A program made the position numbers and the translations under genes. From assembly GCF_013046825.1 (NCBI RefSeq), contig NZ_CP053187.1:2700001-2764000 (forward strand): a stretch of DNA of 64,000 nucleotides, given 5' to 3'. Under the pieces are notes generated by a model. The model ran no database searches. It was not told where the DNA came from and saw only the letters and a program-made list of their open reading frames with translations. The stretch's first letter is position 1, and each line of letters starts with the position of its first letter. The stretch is from Turicibacter sanguinis (lineage in GTDB: Bacteria; Bacillota_I; Bacilli_A; MOL361; Turicibacteraceae). Shown here piece by piece: positions 5,944 to 36,437 of the stretch.

Positions 5944-6777
5944 TTATCTCCCCTTTTTATCAGCAGTCGCAATATAATTGGTTAAAAAGCGGAAAAGATA
6001 ATAAGCTGCTGTTTTAGGAGCAACAATACTTGGAAGCGATCCAGCCAATTCTGCCTGTATTCCGATTTGTTTTGCATAATCAAAGTCGACTCCACCTGGT
6101 TTACTACTTACATCAATAATATAGCAATCTTTTGGAACATAATTTAAAGCTTCTTCATCTAACACCATAGCTGGAACAGTATTTACAATCACATCATAAT
6201 GTTGCAAATCTTCAACCATTAAATCAATATGAATAGGCGTTAATCCCATTTCAAACAATCTCGCCTCGTCTTTTTTCTTTCTAAAGGTCACGGTGACATG
6301 CGCACCTAACGCTTTCAAATCTCTGGCAATGGTTTGACCTGTTCTACCTGCCCCAATCACTAATATTTCAGCTTGATGAATCGTTATTTCTGTGTTTTTA
6401 ATAATATTAAAAATAACGCCTTCTGCTGTTGGAATAGAATTATAAATAGCCACTTCATCATAGTCAAAAATTACTTCACATTTTCTAGGGACAACTTGAA
6501 GCAATTCAACTAATTTCGGGTATTTAATTGGGGTTAAAATGGTACAATCTTCGGGTAAACTCAAGAGCACTTCTTCACTTAATCGCAAATTGGTATTTGC
6601 AATTTTCCCACTTGCACTAATTCCTCCAAACGGCAAAATAAAATAACGAGTTTGCTTTAAAATATTAAAATCAAAACTCAATGATTCCGGATGATACTCA
6701 ACTAAATCAAGTCCACTTTCTCGAATAAAACCAGTTAAGTAATTCATTCGCTTATCATTATTAATAATTAAAATCAT
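5944..6777 (-). CDS. dpaA: Dipicolinate synthase subunit A
   Basis: DpaA (SpoVFA) makes the dipicolinic acid of the spore core in the mother cell, normally together with the flavoprotein DpaB. Family hallmarks are AIYNSIPTAEG near residues 110-120, the Rossmann motif GAGRTG at 142-147, a PGG motif near 228 and IVAPKTA near 257. At 277 residues it is slightly shorter than B. subtilis DpaA (297). AGGTGA lies 8 bases before the ATG. The next gene is asd at 3 bases, whereas in Bacillus dpaB lies between them; no dpaB is present in this window. A sigma-K-type promoter lies about 35 bases upstream. Confidence 0.93.
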   Translation of the reverse strand: MILIINNDKRMNYLTGFIRESGLDLVEYHPESLSFDFNILKQTRYFILPFGGISASGKIANTNLRLSEEVLLSLPEDCTILTPIKYPKLVELLQVVPRKCEVIFDYDEVAIYNSIPTAEGVIFNIIKNTEITIHQAEILVIGAGRTGQTIARDLKALGAHVTVTFRKKKDEARLFEMGLTPIHIDLMVEDLQHYDVIVNTVPAMVLDEEALNYVPKDCYIIDVSSKPGGVDFDYAKQIGIQAELAGSLPSIVAPKTAAYYLFRFLTNYIATADKKGR

Positions 6778-6810
6778 TATCTATCACCTACCTCAAGTTT
6801 TCTTACGTTG

Positions 6811-6841
6811 TATTTTATGACTTTTAACCCCTAGTGGTGAC
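6811..6841 (-). promoter_or_regulatory. Sigma-K-type promoter of the dpaA operon
   Basis: On the minus strand a -35 element GTCACC (6841-6836) and a -10 element CATAAAATA (6819-6811) are 16 bases apart. Both fit the sigma-K consensus (GKMACM and CATANNNTA) at the expected spacing, and the dpaA ribosome site follows. Sigma-K control of dipicolinate synthase is established in B. subtilis. The match is seen in the sequence; promoter activity is inferred. Confidence 0.65.
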
Positions 6842-6877
6842 AGTAATCGAGGTTCTTCTCTACTTATTGCTTTCAAA

Positions 6878-6916
6878 GAAAAAGAGCCTAATTTTAAAAA
6901 TTAGACTCTTTTTTTC
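6878..6916 (-). terminator. Intrinsic terminator after the YlxY-type gene
   Basis: An inverted repeat AAGAGcCTAATTTT / AAAATTAGaCTCTT with one mismatch is bordered by an A-run and a T-run, so it could stop transcription in either direction. It lies between the deacetylase-like gene and the dpaA promoter. Confidence 0.75.
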
Positions 6917-6921
6917 ACCTT

Positions 6922-7857
6922 TTATTTTGTACATTCTGGACGAGTTCCCGCTACCATTTCATCAACTGTTTTAAATTGATACCCTTTTTCTTTTAACTGA
7001 TTAATCATTGGCTCTAAAGCAATGACCGTTTCAGGTTTAGGATGCATTAAGATTAAGGTCCCAGGTTCAACCTTACTCATCACACGATTAATCATTTGAT
7101 CAGCACTTCCTCCCATCCAATCAATGGTATCTGCTGTCCAAAGAATAGTATACATCGATTGATCCGCTGCAGCCTTTAGGGTTCGATCATTAAACTCACC
7201 ACCAGGAGGGGCAAAATAAACAATTGGTTCATTGATAATTGATGATAACACGTCATTCGTTTTCGTGATTTCTTCTACATATTGCTCATATGTATATCCT
7301 CCCCATTTTGAGGGATGAGAATACGAATGATTTCCAATTAAATGTCCATCTGTATATAATTTAGAAACCTGATTTTTATGTTTTTCAGCATAACGACCTT
7401 CAACAAAGAAGTTTGCTTTTACCCCTAGTCGATCCAAAATCGTAATCATTTTATCTAGTTCCTCTTCACCCCAAGCTACATTTATTAATAAAGAAACATA
7501 ATTTCCTTCTTCATTTCCTTTGTAAATGGGTTCATTTCTAAAATCTTCTGGACTATTTTGATAAGGGATACTTTTACACATTAGTAAAGATTCATCAAAA
7601 CTTCCATTTAATAACATATTATTATAAGATAATTCATAATCTATCTCTGCTCCCATCAATCCCGGAACAAATTTAAACACAGAATCTTTTCGTGGTTCAA
7701 CCGGATCTTGACGGTGATTTTGCATGTAATCCATCAATTGAATGGAAATTTCATCATTCATATTGGCAACGGGGGATGATTTTTGAAAAAAATTCAAACT
7801 AATCACAATGCTAACATACCCTACGATGGCGAGTAAGGTTACGATATTTTGTTTCAT
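6922..7857 (-). CDS. YlxY-like polysaccharide deacetylase-family protein
   Basis: A 311-residue membrane-anchored protein with one N-terminal helix (residues about 5-24) and an extracellular NodB-type carbohydrate esterase domain (about 120-300). Motif 2 is intact (HSYSH, His177 and His181), and PPGG near 220, TADTIDW near 243 and LILMHP near 275 follow. Motif 1, normally T-F-D-D-G with the catalytic and metal-binding aspartates, reads NVAWGEE (126-132), so hydrolytic activity is doubtful. To my recollection B. subtilis YlxY, next to pnpA, has a similar motif, which would explain both sequence and position. The small genes mlpA and ymxH that separate ylxY from spoVFA in Bacillus are absent. 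An AGAGGTG ribosome site precedes the ATG. Confidence 0.82.
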   Translation of the reverse strand: MKQNIVTLLAIVGYVSIVISLNFFQKSSPVANMNDEISIQLMDYMQNHRQDPVEPRKDSVFKFVPGLMGAEIDYELSYNNMLLNGSFDESLLMCKSIPYQNSPEDFRNEPIYKGNEEGNYVSLLINVAWGEEELDKMITILDRLGVKANFFVEGRYAEKHKNQVSKLYTDGHLIGNHSYSHPSKWGGYTYEQYVEEITKTNDVLSSIINEPIVYFAPPGGEFNDRTLKAAADQSMYTILWTADTIDWMGGSADQMINRVMSKVEPGTLILMHPKPETVIALEPMINQLKEKGYQFKTVDEMVAGTRPECTK

Positions 7858-17084: not shown

Positions 17085-18143
17085 TTAATGAGTTGTAATA
17101 TACTGTGTCATCACCTTCGCGATGGCTTCGGCAGTATTACATAATTCTTCGTACGTATTATCAACTCCACCGACTTCCATTAAGAGGAGTGTCGTGGCAA
17201 AGTCTTGATTATAAATCCCATTCGTATATTCTCCACCTTTTTCAATAATTCCTTTTGAAAGACCGGGATAATACATATTAAACAAATTATTAATTTCATT
17301 GGCAAAGGCTAAATTTTCTTTATAACGTTGATGATCTTGTCCTACAACCAATAACAACTTAGCATAGGATTTTCCGTCAATTGTGGTGGTCGTTCGATTA
17401 TAGTTTAACGAATCACGATGGATATCAATAAAATATTTGAGAGTGTTATACTCTGTTGCCGTCGACTCTAAATACATGCGGGAAGCTTTATAGGATTGCC
17501 AATATTCCCAATCATTCGCAACTAATACTTCAGAGATATCTCTTGTTTCAACAAGTGTTTTAACTCCTAAATTAGAAAATTCATTCGCTACAAGGTTTGA
17601 CATGTCGCCAACAAAAACTTTACGCCCAAGCATGGCATTGACTTGATCAGATTCATACGTTTCAGAATCATGCGTATTAAAAAGATAAACCAATGGTTCT
17701 GTTGAATTCACCGCTTCTGGCCGTGGTTCTAATTTTAACTCTTCACTGACATAGGTATATTTATAATCATTGGATGTATTCGGTGTAGCAGCGGCCACAC
17801 TACTTTGTTTTGAATCCATTTGAATAAAGGCAAACCCATCATTTAAAAAGGAATACAACTGATTCAAATCAAGGTTTGTCATGACTTCTGCAAAATACTT
17901 TTGTAAATTAGTCATCAGTTCGATAAAATCCGCTGGATTAGCAAAATCAAAAATACTCGATAAAACAACCTCTTGATTGACATGCTTTTCATAGGCTTCT
18001 TTTTGATTGACATAAAATAATTGAAAAAATTGCGTTGAGTATAGCGTCACAACAAAGAATCCTACCACTAAATAGGGAACTCCCTTTGTTAGTTGTTTAC
18101 TTAATTTATTTCTTTTAGAGCGCAAACGACGTTTTCGTTTCAA
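17085..18143 (-). CDS. spoIIP: Stage II sporulation protein P (engulfment peptidoglycan hydrolase)
   Basis: SpoIIP is the membrane-anchored amidase/endopeptidase that works with SpoIID and SpoIIM to degrade septal peptidoglycan during engulfment. It has a very basic N-terminus, one membrane helix (residues about 22-40), a linker to about 145, then the catalytic domain with LFNTHDSETYE (His158), FIDIHRDS (His242) and LLLMEVGGVDNT (Glu322), which fit the zinc and catalytic positions of the family. At 352 residues it is a little shorter than the Bacillus protein (about 400). The start is a TTG preceded by a G-rich ribosome site. It follows gpr, as in Bacillus. Confidence 0.93.
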   Translation of the reverse strand: MKRKRRLRSKRNKLSKQLTKGVPYLVVGFFVVTLYSTQFFQLFYVNQKEAYEKHVNQEVVLSSIFDFANPADFIELMTNLQKYFAEVMTNLDLNQLYSFLNDGFAFIQMDSKQSSVAAATPNTSNDYKYTYVSEELKLEPRPEAVNSTEPLVYLFNTHDSETYESDQVNAMLGRKVFVGDMSNLVANEFSNLGVKTLVETRDISEVLVANDWEYWQSYKASRMYLESTATEYNTLKYFIDIHRDSLNYNRTTTTIDGKSYAKLLLVVGQDHQRYKENLAFANEINNLFNMYYPGLSKGIIEKGGEYTNGIYNQDFATTLLLMEVGGVDNTYEELCNTAEAIAKVMTQYITTH

Positions 18144-18248
18144 AATTCTCCCCCCCAGACCGTTTCCTCTAAGTTAAATTCCTTTTTTCATTTATACTTT
18201 ATTATACCGAATGAGGGTTGTTATTAATTGTTGTTTTATGGTAATCAC

Positions 18249-19316
18249 TTAACTAAATTGTACATTTTGATGTAAAGCACGGTTAATCCCATTTGAAATC
18301 AAGGTTGCCAAATCTTCCATTGCCGTGTCTATTTCTTTTGGTGTGACAATTAAGTTAAATCCATTTGGAGTTAAGACTTCACTAATGAGTTGGCGTTTAT
18401 CTTCCTCAGCAAGGAGTCCCACCTGCCCCATGAATTGTTGACGTAACTCATCCGACGGTAGATCATCCTCACTATATTGTTGACGAACCATTGAAAAAGG
18501 CACTAATTTTTTATACGAACGCTTTTCTTCTTTTAATGATTTTCCAATATGTTTTAATAACAAGTCAATGGTGTCCGACGTAATTGAGACGGCATCTACA
18601 ACCGTTGGAACACCGATGGAAAAAACAGGAATACCAAGCGATTCCTCATCAACGGCTTTACGTTTATTTCCAACCCCACTTCCTGGCGCAATTCCAGTGT
18701 CAGTCATTTGAATCATTTTGTTAACACGAGTTATCGAACGCGAAGCAAGCGCATCAACCATGACTAAAAAATCAGGTTTAATTTTTTTGACCAACGACTC
18801 AATCACATCAAATGTTTCAATCCCTGTCATCCCCATTACACCGGGTGCTAAAGCACTCACTTCACGATAACTACGATCGACTTCGTCTGGTCTTAGTTCA
18901 TAAAGATGACGTGTCACAATCACTTCGTCAACCACCATCGGACCTAAAGCATCTGGCGTCACGTGGTCATTTCCAAGTCCGATGACTAAACAAGTATGTT
19001 CATCCGTAATATTTCGATGATCTAATAATTTTTTAAATTGTTGCGCAAAGACTTCCATAGCAACGGTCAGCTGATCGTGATCATGAGATAAAATAGATGA
19101 CGTATCGAGTGTCATATAGCGCCCCGCCTTTTTCCCCACGCTTTCTTCAGCTTCTTTTTCAACATCAATGCAAGTCACTTTTAAGCCTTTAATATTATCC
19201 TCTTGATAATGGACACCTTTTTGTTGATCTTCATCGACTTGTCCCACCATTTGTTCAACAGCTTCAAGTGCTAAGTCAGATCGGCATTGCCATTTTTTTT
19301 GTTCTTGTTCATTCAT
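18249..19316 (-). CDS. gpr: Germination protease GPR
   Basis: GPR is made as a zymogen in the forespore and degrades small acid-soluble spore proteins on germination. The 355-residue protein has an N-terminal propeptide region, then conserved blocks CLVIGLGNDHVTPDALGP (about residues 108-125), APGVMGMTG near 155 and VDALASR near 185, typical of peptidase family M63/A25. The ATG at 19316 has GAGGTGA at the right spacing; a GTG at 19325 overlaps the ribosome site. It lies upstream of spoIIP with about 105 bases between them. A possible sigma-G promoter lies just upstream. Confidence 0.96.
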   Translation of the reverse strand: MNEQEQKKWQCRSDLALEAVEQMVGQVDEDQQKGVHYQEDNIKGLKVTCIDVEKEAEESVGKKAGRYMTLDTSSILSHDHDQLTVAMEVFAQQFKKLLDHRNITDEHTCLVIGLGNDHVTPDALGPMVVDEVIVTRHLYELRPDEVDRSYREVSALAPGVMGMTGIETFDVIESLVKKIKPDFLVMVDALASRSITRVNKMIQMTDTGIAPGSGVGNKRKAVDEESLGIPVFSIGVPTVVDAVSITSDTIDLLLKHIGKSLKEEKRSYKKLVPFSMVRQQYSEDDLPSDELRQQFMGQVGLLAEEDKRQLISEVLTPNGFNLIVTPKEIDTAMEDLATLISNGINRALHQNVQFS

Positions 19317-19334
19317 TTTTATCACCTCACCTTA

Positions 19335-25058: not shown

Positions 25059-25646
25059 TTAGTTAATCGGTTGAAATTGAATGGTTACATCAGGATTATT
25101 TGTAAATTCTGTTTTAGCCATCATGTAAAGTTCATTCACTTCTTCCACTCCTGGAAAGGCACTTTCATCTGCCACTTGTACAATAACTTGAACCGTTTCT
25201 TCATTAACACGAACTAATACATCATTATAACCTTTTGATTTAATCATTGTTTCAAGCGCGCTTTGATGTTCACGATCTCTATTTAATTTATCTAAATCAT
25301 CTTTTGCTTCACTTTTAGCTGTTGCATCGTAATCTTTACTAGCAATTACTTCTTTTAATTCTGATACTTTTTGACTTTGTTGTTTTTCAAGTTCAACACG
25401 TAACACTTGGATTGAATTCGATTCCGTTGCAACTGTTGTAACATTTTCTTCTGTCGTTGTTTCACTTGCTAACTCACTACCTGTTTGCGCATCAGTTTCG
25501 CTAACTTCCATTTGAACATTTGGTAAGGTTTGAGTTGATCCTGCTCCAGTTGTTAAATCTTTTGGATCTTCCATTCCCATATAAAAAACTGTTAATAAGA
25601 CAAAGACAACAAATAATGCGGCTGTAACATAAGAATTTTTGTTCAT
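25059..25646 (-). CDS. spoIIIAH: Stage III sporulation protein AH
   Basis: SpoIIIAH is the mother-cell partner of the SpoIIQ channel that joins mother cell and forespore across the septum. The 195 residues have one N-terminal helix (about 5-24), a low-complexity Thr/Ser/Gln linker (about 30-75), and a C-terminal YscJ/FliF-like ring-building domain (about 100-195) with a charged helix before it. It is slightly shorter than the Bacillus protein (218). AGGAGG precedes the ATG. It is the last gene of the operon, adjacent to spoIIIAG. No spoIIQ gene is in the window. Confidence 0.9.
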   Translation of the reverse strand: MNKNSYVTAALFVVFVLLTVFYMGMEDPKDLTTGAGSTQTLPNVQMEVSETDAQTGSELASETTTEENVTTVATESNSIQVLRVELEKQQSQKVSELKEVIASKDYDATAKSEAKDDLDKLNRDREHQSALETMIKSKGYNDVLVRVNEETVQVIVQVADESAFPGVEEVNELYMMAKTEFTNNPDVTIQFQPIN

Positions 25647-25647
25647 T

Positions 25648-26166
25648 TTAATTTCCTCCTAATTCAGATGCATTTAATAATGATATTTGATGGATTGGTA
25701 CATCAAGTAACAAACTGATTGCGTTCGTGACATCATAAGGTGCTTTGAGCACTCCGCGATACACAATAACAACTCCATTTGAAACAGTATTTGTTTGATT
25801 TGAAGCGAAGATTGTTGCAGATGAAGAATCCGATACAGTTTTATAAGACAAATTAACACTTTCAAGCGTAACCCCTTCTATTGAGGCAAATAACGTATTA
25901 ATTTGTTCTTGATGTTTCGTCTCAAGTACGTTTGTCGTTGTTTTACCACTGTTGTTTTCAAAACTTCCATTAAACAATGTGGTAAAAATAAAGACGGCTG
26001 CAATAACTGATAGAATTCCAAACGGACCTAAATCTGCGACTATTTTTCTTAACTTCTGAATCATTTGTGATATATCCGAGGTTTTTTTTATCTCCTTCGT
26101 CCCCCCTCCTGATCCGTTTATACTACTTTGAAACACTGCTGGGATTTTTATCCCCTCATCCTTCAT
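25648..26166 (-). CDS. spoIIIAG: Stage III sporulation protein AG
   Basis: SpoIIIAG forms a large ring in the intermembrane space of the forespore channel. The 172 residues have a cytoplasmic stretch, one helix near 46-65 (LGPFGILSVIAAVFIF), then a periplasm-like ring domain, including VVIVYRGVLKAPYDVTNAIS near 132-151. It is shorter than the B. subtilis protein (229). The start codon overlaps the stop of spoIIIAF (ATGA), and a G-rich ribosome site lies inside the spoIIIAF end. Confidence 0.88.
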   Translation of the reverse strand: MKDEGIKIPAVFQSSINGSGGGTKEIKKTSDISQMIQKLRKIVADLGPFGILSVIAAVFIFTTLFNGSFENNSGKTTTNVLETKHQEQINTLFASIEGVTLESVNLSYKTVSDSSSATIFASNQTNTVSNGVVIVYRGVLKAPYDVTNAISLLLDVPIHQISLLNASELGGN

Positions 26167-26618
26167 TGACCTCCCCCCTCAAACAAAATATCGTTTCGGT
26201 CGATTCCTAGTTGATTAGAAACACATAGTTTCGCTTCTTTACTAGTTTCCACCATTTGTATGGTTAGAACTTCATCTAATTCGAATGTGATAATGTCGAC
26301 GTCACAGAGTGCCTCAGCTTTTTGTATCAAGGCATCAACTTCACCTAAGGTAAGATCTTTTAAGTCCTCCTCAAGCTTGCTCTGATAATACTGTACAGAT
26401 TCGTCGAACTCACTCTCACTAATGAAGGTAATCGAATTAATAAATGAACTAACTTCATTATTCATTATACTGAGTACCGGCTTTAAAATGATAACTATAA
26501 TAAAAAAATGAAGATAAAATGAAATTATCTTTTTATAAGAAGCCGGAATAACCAACAAATTGACAACAGCTATCAAAAAAAACATGGCAATAATTTGTTT
26601 GGCGTATGTATATATCAT
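26163..26618 (-). CDS. spoIIIAF: Stage III sporulation protein AF
   Basis: SpoIIIAF is a small two-helix component of the mother cell-forespore channel. Hydrophobic helices lie at about residues 5-23 and 28-48, followed by a roughly 100-residue soluble domain rich in acidic residues. The ATG at 26618 has GAGGAG 11 bases upstream and a family-like start; a TTG at 26648 would add ten polar residues and lacks a ribosome site. It lies between spoIIIAE and spoIIIAG in the canonical order. Confidence 0.8.
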   Translation of the reverse strand: MIYTYAKQIIAMFFLIAVVNLLVIPASYKKIISFYLHFFIIVIILKPVLSIMNNEVSSFINSITFISESEFDESVQYYQSKLEEDLKDLTLGEVDALIQKAEALCDVDIITFELDEVLTIQMVETSKEAKLCVSNQLGIDRNDILFEGGGQ

Positions 26619-26655
26619 TTCTTTTCCCATCTCCTCACATCTTGTCAAATGTTAT

Positions 26656-27714
26656 CTAATTGGTTACTAACATCATATTAGAACTATATAAAATAATAAA
26701 GAACGTAAAGATAAACATAACAGCAATAATAATGGTAATAACTAATAAATTCATAACACCTGTATTAAAAATATCTAAGACGTTAATAAAATCTTTACTA
26801 ACTAGTGGTTGAATAATCGCTGTTAGTAATCGAAACAAGATGGTTGCAATTCCAAGCTTCACAATAGGAAAAGAAACAAAAATAACCAATGTGATGATAC
26901 TTAATAGGCCTACACTATTGCGCATAATCGATAACGTTGAGATAATGGAAACAACCGTATCAGTAAAACGGCTCCCAATAACTGGAATGTAATTCATTAA
27001 AGTTTGCGTTGTCCTAAAAAACAACCCATCCGCAAAACTTAACGTGACATTTTGGATGGACATCAACGTTAAAAAGAATGCAAAATAGCCTCCCAGTGTC
27101 CACAAGGCAATTTTATTAATAAAATTCGTTAATCGACTATATAAATCTTCAATACCAATTTGATTAACAAAACCAAAGATTGTTCCAATCACCGTCAAAG
27201 GTAAACTGACAGCATTAATGAAAAAATAGGAGACATTAATCAAAAATACAACAGCAGGCTGAAATAAGGCATGATTCCAAAGTGCGCCCGTAATGGTAAT
27301 CATCGATAATAAAATAGGAAATACAGCCACAACAATATCCATATATCTTGTTAAAATATCCAGCGTATAGTCGTGATAAAAGACAAATAACCCAAATAAT
27401 TGTACAATCAGAATTAATTTTAAGACTGTATTCGTAATCTTTTCATATCGTGTTGAAAACGTTGTTTGAATATTTTGAAACAACGCAATCACTAATAAGA
27501 AAATTAAAATCATTTTAAACTGAGAAAAACTCACATTTAACTCATACATGGCATATTCAACAATTGACTTAAAAAAACCGACTATATTAAAATTTTCAAC
27601 CTTTAGTAAGTTCGATTTATCAAGATAATCAGCTTGTACAAGCCAGTCATATTGTGAATAGATTTCGGCCCAAATATTGTCAAACGATGATAGATCCATA
27701 CTAAATTGACTCAT
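26656..27714 (-). CDS. spoIIIAE: Stage III sporulation protein AE
   Basis: SpoIIIAE is the multi-spanning membrane component of the forespore channel. The 352 residues begin with a soluble N-terminal part (to about 45) and then have about eight hydrophobic segments. The stretch GDYFAFFLTLMSIQNVTLSFADGL-like region near 205-230 (here GGYFAFFLTLMSIQN, then VTLSFADGL) and YIPVIGSRFTDTVVSI near 240-255 are family hallmarks. AGGGGGTGA precedes the ATG. Confidence 0.92.
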   Translation of the reverse strand: MSQFSMDLSSFDNIWAEIYSQYDWLVQADYLDKSNLLKVENFNIVGFFKSIVEYAMYELNVSFSQFKMILIFLLVIALFQNIQTTFSTRYEKITNTVLKLILIVQLFGLFVFYHDYTLDILTRYMDIVVAVFPILLSMITITGALWNHALFQPAVVFLINVSYFFINAVSLPLTVIGTIFGFVNQIGIEDLYSRLTNFINKIALWTLGGYFAFFLTLMSIQNVTLSFADGLFFRTTQTLMNYIPVIGSRFTDTVVSIISTLSIMRNSVGLLSIITLVIFVSFPIVKLGIATILFRLLTAIIQPLVSKDFINVLDIFNTGVMNLLVITIIIAVMFIFTFFIILYSSNMMLVTN

Positions 27715-27738: not shown

Positions 27739-28122
27739 CTACAATATTGATAAAATTAGTTCAAATAAGGTGATAATCATCGGTAAACTGTACCCGATTA
27801 AATAGAGTTTTACAATATACTCAAACATTTTCCCTACATTACCAAGCTTTGCTTCTGTTAATAAAAAATTAACAAACTCAGCGTAATAAACAATTCCGAT
27901 CAAACGAATGATAATCGTAACATACTGCTGTTCAATATTAAAATTCAAGAACACTGCTGTTAAGTCACCAATCATTTTGGAAAGAATTTGTAAGGCGACC
28001 ATAAAAAAAAATGTTAGCAAGACAAGACTAAATCCTTTAGCATATTTCGGATTTACTTCTTCTAATAGCAAATAAACAAGTGCACATCCAATTACAAGTG
28101 AGATGATTTGAACAATATCAAT
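27739..28122 (-). CDS. spoIIIAD: Stage III sporulation protein AD, apparent ATT start
   Basis: SpoIIIAD is a small three-helix membrane protein of the forespore channel. Family similarity begins at I-D-I-V-Q-I-I, encoded from 28122, and continues without a gap. This gives 127 residues, close to the 133 of B. subtilis. That first codon is ATT. It has AAGGAG nine bases upstream and follows directly on the spoIIIAC stop codon (28138-28140), so no upstream ATG, GTG or TTG is possible in this frame. The first in-frame TTG (28071) would delete the first membrane helix and has no ribosome site. I therefore annotate ATT as the start. Confidence 0.82.
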   Translation of the reverse strand: MDIVQIISLVIGCALVYLLLEEVNPKYAKGFSLVLLTFFFMVALQILSKMIGDLTAVFLNFNIEQQYVTIIIRLIGIVYYAEFVNFLLTEAKLGNVGKMFEYIVKLYLIGYSLPMIITLFELILSIL

Positions 28123-28137
28123 GGCACACCACTCCTT

Positions 28138-28341
28138 CTACAACATGAAGATATTTCGTAAACTGGTCATTAATATTTCGATTAGTTGTACGATAAAAAT
28201 AAGCATATAGACGTAACCAGCAAGTGTAATTAACTCACTGACGTCTTTTGCAATGTCTAACTTTTTAAAAACCATTCCTATAATTCCTAGCAAGAATCCG
28301 ATTCCGGCAAATTGTAATATTTCAGTCACATCAATTGGCAT
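28138..28341 (-). CDS. spoIIIAC: Stage III sporulation protein AC
   Basis: SpoIIIAC is a 67-residue, two-helix membrane protein of the forespore channel. Helices are near residues 6-25 (LQFAGIGFLLGIIGMVF) and 34-58, separated by the conserved K-K-x-x-x-A-K-D-V segment (KKLDIAKDV). GAGGTG lies about 10 bases before the ATG. In Bacillus it is the third gene of the operon. Here nothing resembling spoIIIAA or spoIIIAB precedes it, and a possible sigma-E promoter sits right upstream, so it is now the first gene. Confidence 0.9.
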   Translation of the reverse strand: MPIDVTEILQFAGIGFLLGIIGMVFKKLDIAKDVSELITLAGYVYMLIFIVQLIEILMTSLRNIFML

Positions 28342-28378
28342 CCCTTACACCTCATACTTTCGTTTAATTTGCTATTTA

Positions 28379-28407
28379 ACTCTATGTTTAACTTATTTAA
28401 AAAATAA
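28379..28407 (-). promoter_or_regulatory. Possible sigma-E promoter of the spoIIIAC-AH operon
   Basis: On the minus strand TTATTTT (28407-28401) and CATAGAGT (28386-28379) are 14 bases apart. They match sigma-E (KMATATT and CATACANT) at 5 of 7 and 6 of 8 positions. The spoIIIA operon is sigma-E dependent in Bacillus. Inference from motif and position. Confidence 0.45.
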
Positions 28408-28610
28408 CAAATAAACGATCTTCAGGAAGTAAATCTACAAGGCTATGGATTCATATCATTAAAAAGATGAGCTTTTACCCAAATTACAAACAGAATCCCT
28501 CCTATTTTTAGAATGCTCTGTCGAAATTTCATAAGAAAATTCTTTACTTCTCAACTCAAAGAGCCTATAACTCCCCCTTCCAGAACTAAAAACCTATCCT
28601 TAAGAAAATA
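28408..28610. other. Gene-free interval upstream of spoIIIAC
   Basis: This stretch holds only short open frames without ribosome sites. Two overlapping minus-strand frames (about 30 and 40 codons, around 28450-28570) look faintly protein-like but match nothing I recognise. No trace of the spoIIIAA ATPase or spoIIIAB could be read. Confidence 0.4.
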
Positions 28611-28650
28611 AAAAAAGACTTTAAAAGTCGAAGCTCTAAAGTCTCTAAAA
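28611..28650. repeat. Diverged copy of the efp terminator sequence
   Basis: These 40 bases match 31435-31475 at about 37 of 41 aligned positions in the same orientation. The copy keeps the A-run and the AGACTTTA/TAAAGTCT arms, so it may still act as a terminator. The two copies border the decayed interval between spoIIIAC and efp. Confidence 0.7.
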
Positions 28651-28848
28651 CATGATGATTTTAATGTGTTAATGGATTTAAAACCTTACCCCATAACGAA
28701 GCAATGCCAGAAAGCGTTCATTATCTACGAGTTAAACCCATACTTTGAAGACGTAAGTGATAGACTATGATCACAACCTACAAGAATGTAGCAATATATT
28801 TGCGATAAAAATTTAGAACTACCAAATAAATTTCATAATCAACGCTAA

Positions 28849-28872
28849 AAAAGACACAACTATGTGTCTTTT
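28849..28872. terminator. Bidirectional hairpin terminator
   Basis: AAAAGACACA (28849-28858) and TGTGTCTTTT (28863-28872) form a perfect 10-bp stem with a four-base loop and T-runs on both strands. On the minus strand it is the first terminator after the small membrane-protein gene at 29014-29181. Confidence 0.75.
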
Positions 28873-29013
28873 CTCAAGTTATCTTTTGATAATAGGACTT
28901 AAATCTATCGGAATGCAAACAGAATCATCATTAGTACAAAAGCAATATCACATTATCACTTTTCAGATGCTACCTTTCTTTTTAATCCATCCAGTAGCAT
29001 AGATTCTAACATC

Positions 29014-29181
29014 TTAGATATCAAAATTTTCAAATGCTGCATCTTCCAATTCTTGTAGCATCTTTGCATTTCTTCTTTTCTCTTTAAACGATTTTAAAGC
29101 CACACCTGAAATGAGTCCTGTTAAAATCACTGCTCCAATCGCTCCGTATTTACCTTTATTTTGTTTCATTTTTTCTAACAT
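29014..29181 (-). CDS. Small single-helix membrane protein (55 residues)
   Basis: An ATG at 29181 has GGAGG eight bases upstream and opens a 55-codon frame. The product starts MLEKMKQNKGKYG, has one membrane helix (about residues 13-30, AIGAVILTGLISGVAL), then a basic stretch (KSFKEKRR) and an acidic C-terminal helix ending ENFDI. I do not recognise a family. The strong ribosome site, the sensible membrane-protein topology and the terminator about 140 bases downstream argue that it is real. It lies in the interval where spoIIIAA/AB would be expected but is not similar to them. Confidence 0.6.
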   Translation of the reverse strand: MLEKMKQNKGKYGAIGAVILTGLISGVALKSFKEKRRNAKMLQELEDAAFENFDI

Positions 29182-29786
29182 TCTTCATTCCTCCTTAGTG
29201 TTACTTAATTTGTTAACTTCATATTATCTGAATTTTCGACATAAAAACATTCTTTTTTTAAAATTTTTTATATGATATACTTAGGAGGTAAGCTTAATTT
29301 TCATAAAATGAATGAAGACATGATTATAGAGCAATTAATCACTGACATATTCACCGATCATGATACTAGAACGCGCCCTATGGCGTTTTTTTTATAAAAA
29401 TTTAAATACTAGAATACAAAGTGATTTTCAACATTAAGAGACATCTTTTACACCTTATTCTTTCTTTTTTTTACCTAAATATAATAAGATTATAATCGAC
29501 CATTATCAAGTGGTCCACCTAACACTAATTAACTATTACCCTTTTACATCGTTATAATTATTATTTTTTTAGCCCAGAGAGGTCCTTGTGGCCTCTTTTT
29601 CATTGCTATAACAAAAGTAGCACTGAAGTTCATCGATTCTATCATATTTGATGATGCTGATGAAGGAACGTCTTTTTTCATGGCATCAAAAAAAAGAGAC
29701 ATCACGTTTCTCTCCTGTTACAATGTAATGAGCTAAAGCAATATCGAAAAGATAAATCTTAATGTGTCACTCATAGTCCACTAGAA
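29182..29786. other. Decayed intergenic region with plus-strand terminator-like hairpins
   Basis: About 600 bases without a supported gene. Two plus-strand hairpins followed by T-runs are visible: 29371-29393 (GCGCC...GGCG then eight T) and 29578-29600 (AGAGGtCC, TTGT loop, GGCCTCT then T). A 29-codon frame (29308-29397) ends in the first hairpin, and an open stretch of about 40 codons (29611-29735) ends before the IS; neither has a good ribosome site. Confidence 0.4.
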
Positions 29787-30934
29787 ATTTTTTGAATCCT
29801 GAGTTGTCAATTTAAATCAGACAATTATTCATCACAAACTAAGCAATTGGAAGGAGTGAATCTAATCCAGTTGCTTTTTTCATGATTTCTTCTGGTGTGT
29901 AATAGTTTAAAGATCTTCTGGGTACACGATTATATTTCATCGCAATTTCATTTAATTTCTTTTGTGAATGTACGGATAAATCCGTGGATTTCGGTAGATC
30001 TTGTCTAACGATACTATTTGAATTCTCATTCAATCCTCGTTGTCCTGGTGCTCCTGGATCACTAAAGTAAATCTCAAGAGGTATCTTGCTTTCTTGTTCA
30101 ATTTCTTTCCATCTAGAAAACTCTTTTCCTCGATCAAAGGTTATTGTTTTGATGTCGATTTCAACTTGTTCATTTAGCCAATTTAATGTCGCATCTTTGA
30201 CATCTTGACTCTTACGACTTGCTTTTAATAGTACGATATATTTACTTTTCTTTTCAACTAAAGTGACAATGGCTGATTCACGATTCTTACCGACAATGGT
30301 ATCCCCTTCAAAGTGCCCATATTCTTGATTCATCGAAGCTTTAGGATACTGCTTATCTCGCTCATGAATGGTTTTACAATCATTAATTCTCCCACGTGTT
30401 TCTTTGTGATTTTTAGGGTTATTCTTTCCTTTTCGACGGAGCTTTTTAGCGTCAATGACTCCATTTTTAACAAGCTTATATAATGTTTTAGTCGAGACTC
30501 TTTCTGAGTGATCCATGATCTTATCACGACCCGCGATAGCATCTAATGACCACCCTTGACCTAATAACTCATGAATATTCTTTAACTTCTGTTCTGATAA
30601 CACACGTTCTTTTCTCCCACAACGCTTTTTATTTTGCTTGTAAGTGGAGTAGATTTCTTCAACTGTTAATCCTTGTTTGAATAAGCGATAATAGCGATAC
30701 ACTTTGTCTTTTCCAATGTTCATGCGACGTGCACATTCACGAGCGTTAACTCCTAAATAATAATTTGACTCTATATTTGTCAGCTGATTTATGTTAAGAT
30801 GATGATAAGACATAGATGAAAACTCCTTAATTTGTTTGGCGATGAATTAAGTGTACCATCTATGTCTTTTTTATTACCATTAAATACGTTTACCAGTTGT
30901 CTGACTTAATTATATAATTCAGGAATCAAAAAAT
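29787..30934 (-). mobile_element. IS30-family insertion sequence
   Basis: About 1.15 kb holding one intact transposase gene, bounded by imperfect inverted repeats of about 40 bases: ATTTTTTGAATCCTGAGTT at 29787 and ATTTTTTGATTCCTGAATT read inward from 30934, continuing into AAATCAGACAA / AAGTCAGACAA. Size and transposase type fit the IS30 family. A target duplication is not clear because both flanks are A-rich. Confidence 0.8.
29839..30813 (-). CDS. IS30-family transposase
   Basis: A 324-residue DDE transposase. An N-terminal helix-turn-helix (about 15-45, NARECARRMNIGKDKVYRY) and a second DNA-binding part precede the catalytic core. That core has FEGDTIVGK (first Asp, near 169), TFDRGKEFSRW (second Asp, near 229) and ENSNSIVRQDLPK (Glu, near 263), the IS30 arrangement. 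AAGGAG precedes the ATG. No frameshift or stop interrupts it, so the element may be active. Confidence 0.93.
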   Translation of the reverse strand: MSYHHLNINQLTNIESNYYLGVNARECARRMNIGKDKVYRYYRLFKQGLTVEEIYSTYKQNKKRCGRKERVLSEQKLKNIHELLGQGWSLDAIAGRDKIMDHSERVSTKTLYKLVKNGVIDAKKLRRKGKNNPKNHKETRGRINDCKTIHERDKQYPKASMNQEYGHFEGDTIVGKNRESAIVTLVEKKSKYIVLLKASRKSQDVKDATLNWLNEQVEIDIKTITFDRGKEFSRWKEIEQESKIPLEIYFSDPGAPGQRGLNENSNSIVRQDLPKSTDLSVHSQKKLNEIAMKYNRVPRRSLNYYTPEEIMKKATGLDSLLPIA

Positions 30935-30954
30935 AAAAACTTCACCCTTCTTAA

Positions 30955-31306
30955 TATGATGTTGAAACAGTTAAATTAAATGAATTCACTAAATTTTTTG
31001 AAAAAGAAATTTTGCCTTATCCCTCCACTCATGATAGAAACAGTGTGGAATTCTTTTGATTCCAATTAAAAAGTATGATTTTAAAACGTCTCATATTGTT
31101 ATTTCCAAAACCTCACTCCCTGATATCGATCTAGATTTAAAGGAACAGTGTTATGATTGTGTGTATGATCGATTTACATTTACTCAAAAACATTTATTAT
31201 TGAAAAGAACGGTTATACTTTCTACCATACAAAATACGAGATTGTTTTAGAGGTACAAAATAAAATTTCAGAGTGGCGGGTCCTCTACAGTTCACTCCTT
31301 TTATGA
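30955..31306 (+). pseudogene. Frameshifted remnant of an unidentified protein gene
   Basis: Three protein-like segments follow one another on the plus strand, each in the next -1 frame: 30955-31059 (including FTKFFEKEILPYPSTHDR), 31056-about 31210 (including SLPDIDLDLKEQCYDCVYDR) and 31208-31306 (including YEIVLEVQNKISEWRVLYSS). Single-base losses at about 31055 and 31210 would join them into one product of about 115 residues. No start codon with a ribosome site remains. It begins 20 bases after the IS30 end. Family not recognised. Confidence 0.5.
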
Positions 31307-31434
31307 GCTATTAATACGTATTCTCATAACTCAAAACATAACTCAACTAAAATAAAAACACCTAGTCATTTCATCACAAGGCTTATTCTTAAAGTCATTC
31401 ATTGTAATAGATGCAATACTCTTTGAGAAAGAAC
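31307..31434. other. AT-rich spacer
   Basis: No open frame, hairpin or known motif stands out between the pseudogene and the efp terminator. Confidence 0.4.
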
Positions 31435-31475
31435 AAAAAAGACTTTAAAAGCCAAAGCTCTTAAAGTCTTTAAAA
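31435..31475 (-). terminator. Intrinsic terminator after efp
   Basis: On the minus strand AAAGACTTTAA and TTAAAGTCTTT pair around a 12-base loop and are followed by a run of T. A diverged direct copy lies at 28611-28650. Confidence 0.8.
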
Positions 31476-31533
31476 TATAATAATATCAATATTTTATCCT
31501 ATTCAAGATAAAATTTATAATGTTCCAAAGAAA

Positions 31534-32091
31534 TTATCCGCGAGATACGTAACGTCCATCATTTGTGTTGATGATTAATTTATCTCCAACTTCAACGAAT
31601 AAAGGAACTTGTAAAGAGTATCCAGTTGAAACTGTTGCACTCTTAGTTGCATTAGAAGCTGTGTTTCCTTTAACACCTGGCTCACATTCTACAACTTCTA
31701 ATGTTACTTTTTCAGGAACTTCAACTCCTAAGATTTCACCGTTGTAGCTCATCACTTTAACTTCCATTCCATCAACTAAGAAGTTTTTCTCTTGCTCTAA
31801 TTGAGCAGCCGTTAATTCAATTTGTTCATATGTTTCATTGTTCATGAAAACATACTCATCTCCCATTGAATATAAGAATTGCATTGTTGATTTTTCAACG
31901 TGTGCACGTTTAACTTTTTCACCTGCATTGAATGTATTATCAATAACAGCTCCAGAACGTAAGTTACGTAATTTAGAACGTACGAAGGCTTGTCCTTTAC
32001 CTGGTTTTACGTGTTGGAATTCGATAATTTGGAATAAGTTTCCTTCATAATCGATAGTCATACCTGTTTTAAAATCGTTACTTGAAATCAT
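31534..32091 (-). CDS. efp: Elongation factor P
   Basis: EF-P relieves ribosome stalling at polyproline stretches. The 185-residue protein has the three-domain EF-P pattern. The modified lysine is in the loop [11 protein letters not shown] (Lys32); the PGKGxAF context is the one that is 5-aminopentanolylated in B. subtilis. The C-terminal [26 protein letters not shown] is typical (split near residues 160-185). AAGGAGG precedes the ATG. In Bacillus efp lies upstream of spoIIIAA; here a decayed interval follows instead. Confidence 0.97.
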
Positions 32092-35058: not shown

Positions 35059-35592
35059 ATGGCTAAATATAGCTCAGAATTTAAGTTGCATGTTGTTAAC
35101 GAGTATTTGCAGGGAACTTTAGGTTACCGTTTGCTCGCTAAAAAATATCACATACCAAGTAAATCACAAATTGAAACGTGGGTTAGACAATATAAACAAA
35201 CTGGAAGAAGTGGAGTTCAACGAAAAGAAAAACAAGAATATACTGGAGAATTTAAATTAAATGTATTAAACGATATGAAAACAACAGGTGCTTCATATAG
35301 TCAAACTGCTATCCATTTTGGATTATCAGAGATAGGAACGATTGCCAATTGGAAGGCAGACTTTCTAAAAGACGGTGCAGAGGCATTCTTTAAATCGAAA
35401 GGAAGGCCTCAAAATCCTATGACTAAATTAAAAGCATCTAAACAACCAAAAACTTTAACTCGTGAACAACAATTAGAAGAAGAACTTAAATTATTGAGAA
35501 TCGAGAATGAATACTTAAAAAAGTGTCACGCCCATGGAATTACGCCATGGAGCCAAAGAATCAAATCGAAACAAGAATCATCCAAGAATTAA
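35059..35592 (+). CDS. IS3-family OrfA (helix-turn-helix protein)
   Basis: A 177-residue DNA-binding protein with two helix-turn-helix segments (about residues 5-50 and 60-110) and a leucine-zipper-like C-terminus (LEEELKLLRIENEYLKK). The sequence A-AAA-AAG at 35517-35523 lies in the correct phase for -1 ribosomal slippage into orfB, giving the OrfAB transposase. No stop or deletion interrupts it. Confidence 0.9.
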   Translation: MAKYSSEFKLHVVNEYLQGTLGYRLLAKKYHIPSKSQIETWVRQYKQTGRSGVQRKEKQEYTGEFKLNVLNDMKTTGASYSQTAIHFGLSEIGTIANWKADFLKDGAEAFFKSKGRPQNPMTKLKASKQPKTLTREQQLEEELKLLRIENEYLKKCHAHGITPWSQRIKSKQESSKN

Positions 35593-36437
35593 CGGCTAAT
35601 TTTAAATTAAGTGACATTTTAAAGGTCACAAAGTTTCCTAAATCAACCTATCACTATTGGGTCAATAAGATGAAACAAGTAAATCCTGATCAAGAGCTTG
35701 AAGAGCTGATTTTAATTATTTTTAAAGAGAGTGATGAGACTTACGGCTATCGTCGAATTCAAGATGAGCTTTATAATAGAGGAATTAGAATCAATCATAA
35801 AAAAGTATATCGTCTCATGAAAAAGCTTGGGATAATGTGTGTCAAGTTTGGTCGTAAATCACGTCAATATCGCTCATACAAAGGGACTGTTGGAACAGTG
35901 GCTAAGAATCGAATTAATCGCCGTTTTAATACACCGTATCCTTATCAAAAGTTAACAACAGATGTGACGGAGTTTAAAACACAAGAAGGAAAGAAATTAT
36001 ATTTGAGCCCTATAATGGATATGGCAACGGGTGAAATTTTATCTTTTTCAATTAGCCATAAACCTGATTTAAACTTTGTCATGGAATCATTATATCAAGT
36101 TCTTCCAATTCTTGAACAAGCTAAATATCGAACAACGATTCATTCTGATCAAGGTTGGCACTATCAACATAGACAATGGGTTCAAACATTAAAACAGAAT
36201 AACATATTTCAAAGTATGTCTCGTAAAGGAAACTGTTTAGATCATTCTCCTATGGAAAATTTCTTCGAGATTCTTAAACAAGAAAAATATTATGGTAAAA
36301 CATTCAAAACATATGAGGAGCTAAAAGAAGCAATTGAAGAATATATTGACTACTATAATCATAAACGAATCAAAAGAAAATTGGCTGGCATGAGTCCAGT
36401 TCAATACCGAATTCATACCAGCCAATTGGCTGCTTAA
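35523..36437 (+). CDS. IS3-family OrfB (DDE transposase catalytic part)
   Basis: A 304-residue rve-type catalytic domain. It contains the HTH_21-like segment YGYRRIQDEL near 75-84, the first Asp in TTDVTEF (near 145), the second in HSDQGWHY (near 210) and Glu in MENFFEILKQE (near 245). It overlaps orfA by 70 bases in the -1 frame and is expected to be translated as a fusion by slippage at 35517-35523. Intact. Confidence 0.93.
   Translation: MSRPWNYAMEPKNQIETRIIQELTANFKLSDILKVTKFPKSTYHYWVNKMKQVNPDQELEELILIIFKESDETYGYRRIQDELYNRGIRINHKKVYRLMKKLGIMCVKFGRKSRQYRSYKGTVGTVAKNRINRRFNTPYPYQKLTTDVTEFKTQEGKKLYLSPIMDMATGEILSFSISHKPDLNFVMESLYQVLPILEQAKYRTTIHSDQGWHYQHRQWVQTLKQNNIFQSMSRKGNCLDHSPMENFFEILKQEKYYGKTFKTYEELKEAIEEYIDYYNHKRIKRKLAGMSPVQYRIHTSQLAA

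What the first reader, a model, noticed from the sequence alone, without database searches (positions are those of the whole stretch)
28342..31533. spoIIIA operon starts at spoIIIAC; spoIIIAA and spoIIIAB are replaced by a decayed, IS30-bearing interval
In Bacillus the order is efp, then spoIIIAA to spoIIIAH. Here efp and spoIIIAC-AH are in place, but the 3.2 kb between them holds an IS30-family element, a frameshifted pseudogene, a small membrane-protein gene and terminator repeats, with no readable trace of the AA ATPase or AB. A sigma-E-like promoter sits directly before spoIIIAC. Either the two genes moved, or this organism builds the forespore channel without its ATPase, or sporulation is degenerating.
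Basis: partly seen in the sequence, partly recalled or inferred. Interest (0 to 1): 0.62.

Follow-up and report, generated by a model that had tools for sequence, protein, structure and literature searches.

The report
Turicibacter spore channel lacking its motor
This gut bacterium (a Turicibacter) and its relatives keep the operon for the mother cell-to-spore channel but lost its ATPase motor and one partner gene in an ancestor of the family; the transposon debris seen here arrived later and is not the cause.

Summary
The causal reading does not hold. All five Turicibacter species examined and a sister genus have an operon that begins at AC behind the same sigma-E-like promoter block, and in one species efp and spoIIIAC are 296 bp apart with no IS. 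AA/AB were lost in a family ancestor; the 3.2-kb interval is a later, lineage-specific expansion. The 'pseudogene' is the 5' end of a dead ISL3 element split by the IS30. The only secretion ATPases found are ComGA, PilB and PilT in their own clusters. Sporulation does not look degenerate: sigF, sigE and sigG operons, spoIVA, spoIIP and gpr are intact, AC-AH evolve under purifying selection, and published Turicibacter isolates survive ethanol or chloroform. Best reading: an ATPase-less SpoIIIA complex, with AG also lacking its cup insert. Across the class SpoIVA is common (119 of 395 genomes) but SpoIIIAE occurs only in Turicibacteraceae (6). AA/AB loss in Erysipelotrichia and Planococcaceae is already in published surveys, so this refines a known pattern. 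SpoIIQ and this strain's phenotype were not tested.

The parts
28138..28341 (-). spoIIIAC, first gene of the shortened spoIIIA operon
   Evidence: TIGR02848 1.9e-7; 66-76% identity to AC of four congeners
27739..28122 (-). spoIIIAD
   Evidence: TIGR02849 1.6e-9; dN/dS about 0.05-0.10
26656..27714 (-). spoIIIAE
   Evidence: PF09546 9.5e-53; dN/dS about 0.05-0.09
26163..26648 (-). spoIIIAF
   Evidence: PF09581 1.4e-7; dN/dS 0.16-0.22
25648..26166 (-). spoIIIAG, short form: ring-building motif without the cup-forming insert
   Evidence: order; aligns to PDB 5wc3 in two pieces with 7 residues where 5wc3 has 51; predicted alpha-beta-beta-alpha-beta; PrgK and SpoIIIAF are the top PDB folds
25059..25646 (-). 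spoIIIAH
   Evidence: PF12685 1.5e-22; matches B. subtilis SpoIIIAH 3uz0 at 4.9e-16
28378..28407 (-). sigma-E-like promoter block: TTATTTTTT (28399-28407), 12 nt, CATAGAGTT (28378-28386), followed by TAGCAAATT
   Evidence: same block upstream of the first operon gene in 5 Turicibacter species and sister genus G006
29787..30934 (-). IS30-family element (transposase ORF 29839-30813)
   Evidence: NF033563 5.1e-68; 38-bp imperfect terminal inverted repeats; 44% identity to IS6770-type transposases
29637..29797 (+). left part of a dead ISL3-family element into which the IS30 inserted
   Evidence: 84% DNA identity to L050:4859-5017, upstream end of an intact ISL3 element
30929..31275 (+). right part of the same ISL3 remnant: the 'frameshifted pseudogene', transposase N-terminal part
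   Evidence: 76% DNA identity to L050:5021-5370 over 352 columns; intact copy is NF033550 ISL3 321 bits
29014..29181 (-). 55-aa ORF, small membrane-type protein, no family
   Evidence: no Pfam or NCBIfam match; not shown to be a gene
31438..31471 (-). intrinsic terminator after efp; diverged copy of the surrounding repeat at 28597-28671
   Evidence: 15-bp stem plus T-run; 79% over 77 bp between copies; homologous terminator in the 296-bp G004 spacer
31534..32091 (-). efp, the neighbour that marks the old AA/AB site
   Evidence: TIGR00038 1.4e-77
17085..19325 (-). gpr (18249-19325) and spoIIP (17085-18143), intact sporulation genes elsewhere in the window
   Evidence: TIGR01441 390 bits, TIGR02867 166 bits, both over cut-off
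5944..7857 (-). dpaA-like (5944-6777) and ylxY-like polysaccharide deacetylase (6922-7857)
   Evidence: NF006162 5.1e-76, TIGR02873 1.2e-77, both below strict cut-offs

Best explanation
This is the spoIIIA operon of a Turicibacter. The common ancestor of Turicibacter and a sister genus deleted spoIIIAA (the ATPase) and spoIIIAB (its GspF-like partner) in place, leaving efp next to a sigma-E-driven spoIIIAC-AH operon. IS elements came later: in this lineage an ISL3-family element decayed and an IS30 jumped into it, which widened the gap. The retained membrane proteins (AC, AD, AE, AF) and ring proteins (AG, AH) still form the mother-cell half of the forespore complex. It most likely works as an unpowered conduit or scaffold, with no ATP-driven secretion motor. 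Shown here: absence of AA/AB, timing relative to the IS, a conserved promoter block, purifying selection, the AH ring/SpoIIQ-binding domain and (weakly) the trimmed AG. Inferred: that the complex assembles, that it supports sigma-G activity, and that transport is passive.
For: AA and AB profiles find nothing above threshold in G000 or in seven relatives, while B. subtilis rings. All three strong T2SSE hits are ComGA, PilT and PilB in com or type IV pilus clusters. In G004 efp and spoIIIAC are 296 bp apart, separated only by a terminator and the promoter. The same promoter block lies before the first gene in six genomes of two genera. The interval's pseudogene is ISL3, split by IS30. dN/dS is about 0.05-0.10 for AC/AD/AE and below 0.4 for AF/AG/AH. 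SpoIVA, sigG, sigE-spoIIGA, sigF-spoIIAB-spoIIAA, spoIIP and gpr are intact. Turicibacter isolates survive ethanol (PMC7000398) or chloroform (PMC11320971). Sporosarcina spore formers show the AC-AD-AE-AG-AH-Q signature without AA/AB (PMC7924749).
Against: In B. [quoted passage not shown] SpoIIQ was not searched for. No expression or phenotype data exist for this strain. A very divergent or unrelated ATPase could stand in.
Confidence: 0.66

Rival explanations
1. The motor was replaced, not lost: another ATPase (ComGA, PilB, PilT or an unrelated P-loop protein) energises the complex in trans.
For: Three T2SS/T4P-type ATPases and two GspF-like partners are encoded in the genome; SpoIIIAA and SpoIIIAB belong to the same superfamilies.
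Against: Each of the three sits in its own competence or pilus cluster and matches that family's model. None is near spoIIIA.
Confidence: 0.15
2. AC-AH persist only as an engulfment zipper or ratchet and septal scaffold (AH with SpoIIQ, AG ring) with no transport role, so no motor is needed.
For: AH keeps the domain that binds SpoIIQ in B. subtilis. AG has lost the cup insert. Other SpoIVA+ and sigma-G+ genomes of the class live without detectable SpoIIIAE.
Against: The integral membrane proteins AC, AD and AE, the presumed pore or export part, are the most constrained of the set, which a pure AH-Q zipper would not explain.
Confidence: 0.2
3. Sporulation is degenerating in this lineage and the operon is a relic.
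For: AA/AB are lost, AG is trimmed, and the interval is full of dead IS elements.
Against: Intact sigF, sigE and sigG operons, spoIVA, spoIIP and gpr; purifying selection on AC-AH across diverged species; resistant isolates reported from the genus.
Confidence: 0.07
4. AA/AB were destroyed recently by the IS30 and ISL3 insertions, as the title of the finding implies.
For: The interval contains both elements.
Against: No relative has AA/AB. G004 has a clean 296-bp junction. The operon-start promoter is conserved across two genera. No AA/AB trace in the interval.
Confidence: 0.02

Closest known systems
spoIIIA operon of Bacillus subtilis and Clostridioides difficile (SpoIIIAA-AH with SpoIIQ)
   Same: Order AC-AH, position next to efp (B. 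subtilis), sigma-E-like promoter, AH and AG ring-building domains.
   Different: No AA ATPase and no AB; operon starts at AC; AG lacks the insert that forms the cup of the B. subtilis AG ring.
SpoIIIA sets of Planococcaceae (Sporosarcina, Solibacillus, Lysinibacillus) reported without AA, AB and AF (PMC7924749, PMC3533761)
   Same: Spore-forming lineage that keeps a partial SpoIIIA set without the ATPase or AB.
   Different: Turicibacter keeps AF; the loss is in a distant lineage and so probably independent.
Erysipelotrichia pattern in PMC7924749 (AA, AB and AF not recovered; Turicibacter H121 said to lack most SpoIIIA proteins)
   Same: Same clade; AA and AB absent.
   Different: Here AC-AH, AF included, are all found, conserved and under selection, and the loss is tied to an in-place deletion that predates the IS.

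Membership tests
SpoIIIA operon / SpoIIIA-SpoIIQ complex | SpoIIIAE and AC/AD integral membrane proteins | tested here: met
   PF09546 9.5e-53; TIGR02848/49 1.9e-7 and 1.6e-9
SpoIIIA operon / SpoIIIA-SpoIIQ complex | SpoIIIAH and SpoIIIAG with ring-building motif | tested here: met
   AH matches 3uz0/3tuf. AG is weak by sequence (0.23 to 5wc3) but the predicted fold has the motif's topology, with PrgK and SpoIIIAF as top fold matches
SpoIIIA operon / SpoIIIA-SpoIIQ complex | SpoIIIAA ATPase with Walker A/B, Asp and His boxes | tested here: not met
   Nothing at E<=0.001 genome-wide; only a 14-bit local hit with stops at E<=10; T2SSE hits are ComGA/PilB/PilT
SpoIIIA operon / SpoIIIA-SpoIIQ complex | SpoIIIAB | tested here: not met
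   No match in G000 even at E<=1
SpoIIIA operon / SpoIIIA-SpoIIQ complex | sigma-E-dependent promoter before the first gene | tested here: inconclusive
   Conserved TCATTTTT / 12-14 nt / CATA-AGTT block in six genomes; a similar match before spoIVA; no expression data
SpoIIIA operon / SpoIIIA-SpoIIQ complex | SpoIIQ partner in the forespore | not tested
[quoted passage not shown]
   Needs genetics
IS30 family | DDE transposase of IS30 type with terminal inverted repeats | tested here: met
   NF033563 230 bits, cut-off 80; 38-bp imperfect terminal repeats
ISL3 family (the 'pseudogene') | homology to an intact ISL3 transposase gene | tested here: met
   76-84% DNA identity to L050:4859-5370; intact copy NF033550 321 bits

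The most novel reading that the evidence does not exclude
Turicibacter runs a selected, sporulation-relevant SpoIIIA complex with neither an ATPase, nor SpoIIIAB, nor the AG cup. It is a surviving intermediate in a stepwise dismantling: full set in Bacillus, motor-less in Turicibacter, no detectable SpoIIIAE in other SpoIVA+ and sigma-G+ genomes of the class. That would mean ATP-driven secretion is not the indispensable activity of the 'feeding tube'.
Probability: 0.5. Interest if true: 0.72.

Novelty: new variant of a known kind. Interest (0 to 1): 0.5.

Why it matters
Whether the SpoIIIA-SpoIIQ complex is an ATP-driven secretion machine, a passive pore or a mechanical zipper is unsettled. 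A lineage that keeps and constrains the pore and ring proteins but has no ATPase separates these models naturally. It also shows that surveys which score SpoIIIA as mostly absent in Turicibacter miss a conserved AC-AH operon.

Tried and rejected
1) AA/AB moved elsewhere: rejected, no profile hit in the complete genome. 2) A hidden AA among the T2SSE-family ATPases: rejected, they are ComGA, PilT and PilB in their own clusters. 3) The pseudogene as an AA/AB remnant: rejected, it is ISL3, and operon-sense frames show no Pfam trace. 4) IS30 as cause of the loss: rejected by G004 and the other relatives. 5) A phylum-wide control set with Bacillus/Clostridia was attempted, but the genomes listed from the phylum draw were all of the same class, so the Planococcaceae comparison rests on the literature. 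6) The AF profile against PDB gave only compositional matches to designed repeat proteins. 7) The whole genome was not available as a file; only targeted stretches were taken. 8) Galperin et al. 2022 on sporulation gene loss is not held in the library; from memory it reports strong loss in Planococcaceae and Erysipelotrichaceae.
Full report
OBSERVATION. The window is part of a complete 2,999,687-bp genome (G000:C1:2700001-2764000). The only named relative found is Turicibacter sp. UBA7094, whose SpoIIIAE is 77% identical; four congeners are held as G001-G004. Reading from efp in its own direction (minus strand), the order is efp (31534-32091), a 3192-bp interval, then spoIIIAC, AD, AE, AF, AG, AH (28341 down to 25059). 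Family models confirm AC, AD, AE, AF and AH. AG is recognised only weakly by sequence and is accepted on position, a two-piece alignment to B. subtilis SpoIIIAG (5wc3) and its predicted fold.

SPOIIIAA AND SPOIIIAB ARE ABSENT. PF19568 (SpoIIIAA) and PF09548 (SpoIIIAB) find nothing in the genome at E<=0.001, while B. subtilis rings in the controls. At E<=10 the only AA match is a 14-bit local hit in a frame with stops; AB has no match at E<=1. The broader T2SSE profile finds three strong ATPases. They sit in a comG operon, beside a prepilin peptidase, and in a pilB-pilC-pilM-N-O cluster, and they match ComGA, PilT and PilB. No further T2SSE-type ATPase is left over that could be SpoIIIAA.

WHAT FILLS THE INTERVAL. 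An IS30-family element spans about 29787-30934 with 38-bp imperfect terminal repeats. The frameshifted pseudogene is not a SpoIIIA relic. Window 29637-29797 and 30929-31275 match, at 84% and 76%, adjoining parts of one intact ISL3-family element that lies beside spoIIGA in the same genome (L050:4859-5370). The IS30 therefore jumped into an ISL3 copy that is now decayed. The rest is a terminator after efp with a diverged second copy, and a 55-aa ORF of unknown status. Three operon-sense frames of the non-IS30 parts give no Pfam match.

TIMING. In G004 efp and spoIIIAC are separated by 296 bp: a terminator and a promoter region, no IS and no gene. G003 has a different 2.1-kb spacer. G001 has other genes upstream and no efp within the stretch read. 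G002's contig ends 503 bp upstream of AC. Sister-genus genome G006 also begins the operon with an AC-type gene. None of these genomes has AA or AB above threshold. All six share a promoter-like block (TCAT-TTTT, 12-14 nt, CATA-AGTT, then TAGCAAATT) immediately before the first operon gene. The simplest history is one in-place deletion of AA-AB before these genera split, with efp marking the old site, followed by independent changes of the spacer.

IS SPORULATION ALIVE? The window has intact gpr and spoIIP, and dpaA- and ylxY-like genes. Just outside lie spoIIGA-sigE-sigG. Elsewhere are spoIIAA-spoIIAB-sigF and a full spoIVA. SigG, SigE, SpoIIAA, SpoIIAB and SpoIVA pass an NCBIfam cut-off; SigF and SpoIIGA match over their length but fall below theirs. 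Pairwise dN/dS within the genus is about 0.05-0.10 for AC, AD and AE, 0.16-0.22 for AF, 0.23-0.26 for AG and 0.29-0.38 for AH. Synonymous divergence is high and in some pairs saturated, so the values are rough, but they indicate constraint. Turicibacter has been recovered from ethanol-treated stool, with T. sanguinis now regarded as endospore-forming (PMC7000398), and from chloroform-treated faeces (PMC11320971). The phenotype of this particular strain is not known to me.

WHAT THE REDUCED COMPLEX LOOKS LIKE. AH keeps the B. subtilis SpoIIIAH ring domain. AG aligns to 5wc3 in two pieces with 7 residues where B. subtilis AG has 51. The AlphaFold model (pLDDT above 80 over most of the core, low elsewhere) is alpha-beta-beta-alpha-beta with a plain loop at that place, and its best PDB matches are the PrgK-type needle-complex protein and SpoIIIAF (E about 0.01-0.03, probability at least 0.95). 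In B. subtilis a unique insertion in the AG ring-building motif forms most of the cup (PMC6934232). So besides the motor, Turicibacter appears to have lost the cup. The sequence match is weak and this point is tentative.

WIDER PATTERN. In one draw of 395 genomes of the class, SpoIVA passes its cut-off in 119, but SpoIIIAE is found in only 6, all Turicibacteraceae. A SpoIIIAE profile built from Turicibacteraceae was run on 80 SpoIVA+ genomes: it found the two known positives (G000, G006) and no convincing match in the other 78; the best of those was E 0.15. Two SpoIVA+ members of the same family (G005, G007) are among the negatives. In a 50-genome subset, 40 carry a full-length SigG-type hit of at least 290 bits. 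Turicibacter therefore looks like an intermediate. Extremely diverged AE homologues cannot be excluded.

MECHANISM. In B. subtilis all four ATPase motifs of SpoIIIAA are needed for sigma-G activity (PMC2703783), and AA or AB deletion cuts sporulation to 0.001-0.003% (PMC12720343). In C. difficile ATP binding matters more than hydrolysis (PMC4605598). The best explanation is that Turicibacter uses the AC-AH complex without an ATP-driven motor, as an unpowered conduit or scaffold. That it transports anything, and that SpoIIQ is its partner, is inferred.

NOVELTY. Published surveys already note that Erysipelotrichia lack AA, AB and AF and that Planococcaceae spore formers lack AA, AB and AF (PMC7924749). 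An earlier study set aside the Lysinibacillus sphaericus case as unreliable sequence (PMC3533761). New here are the intact, constrained AC-AH operon with AF, the demonstration of in-place loss that predates the IS, the identity of the 'pseudogene', the trimmed AG, and the class-wide contrast between SpoIVA and SpoIIIAE.

Noticed in passing
L029:4709-5092 (-), sister-genus genome G006: The first gene of the operon encodes two AC-like halves in tandem (37% identity between halves, E 5e-13) where Turicibacter has a single 67-aa AC.
   Followed up: partly
G005 and G007 (same family, other genus): Both have intact SpoIVA and a SigG-type factor but no detectable SpoIIIAE, even with a family-specific profile.
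   Followed up: partly
395 genomes of the class: 119 have SpoIVA over cut-off but only 6 have SpoIIIAE; the forespore channel core is undetectable in most apparent spore formers of this class.
   Followed up: partly
window 28342-28407 and the same place in five relatives: The motif TAGCAAATT directly downstream of the -10-like block is invariant across two genera; possible regulator site or transcript start feature.
   Followed up: no
L050:4979-6268: An intact ISL3-family transposase gene lies directly upstream of spoIIGA-sigE-sigG, in divergent orientation.
   Followed up: no
window 35059-36437: An IS3-family element (two overlapping transposase ORFs) lies a few kb upstream of efp, so mobile elements cluster around this locus.
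   Followed up: no
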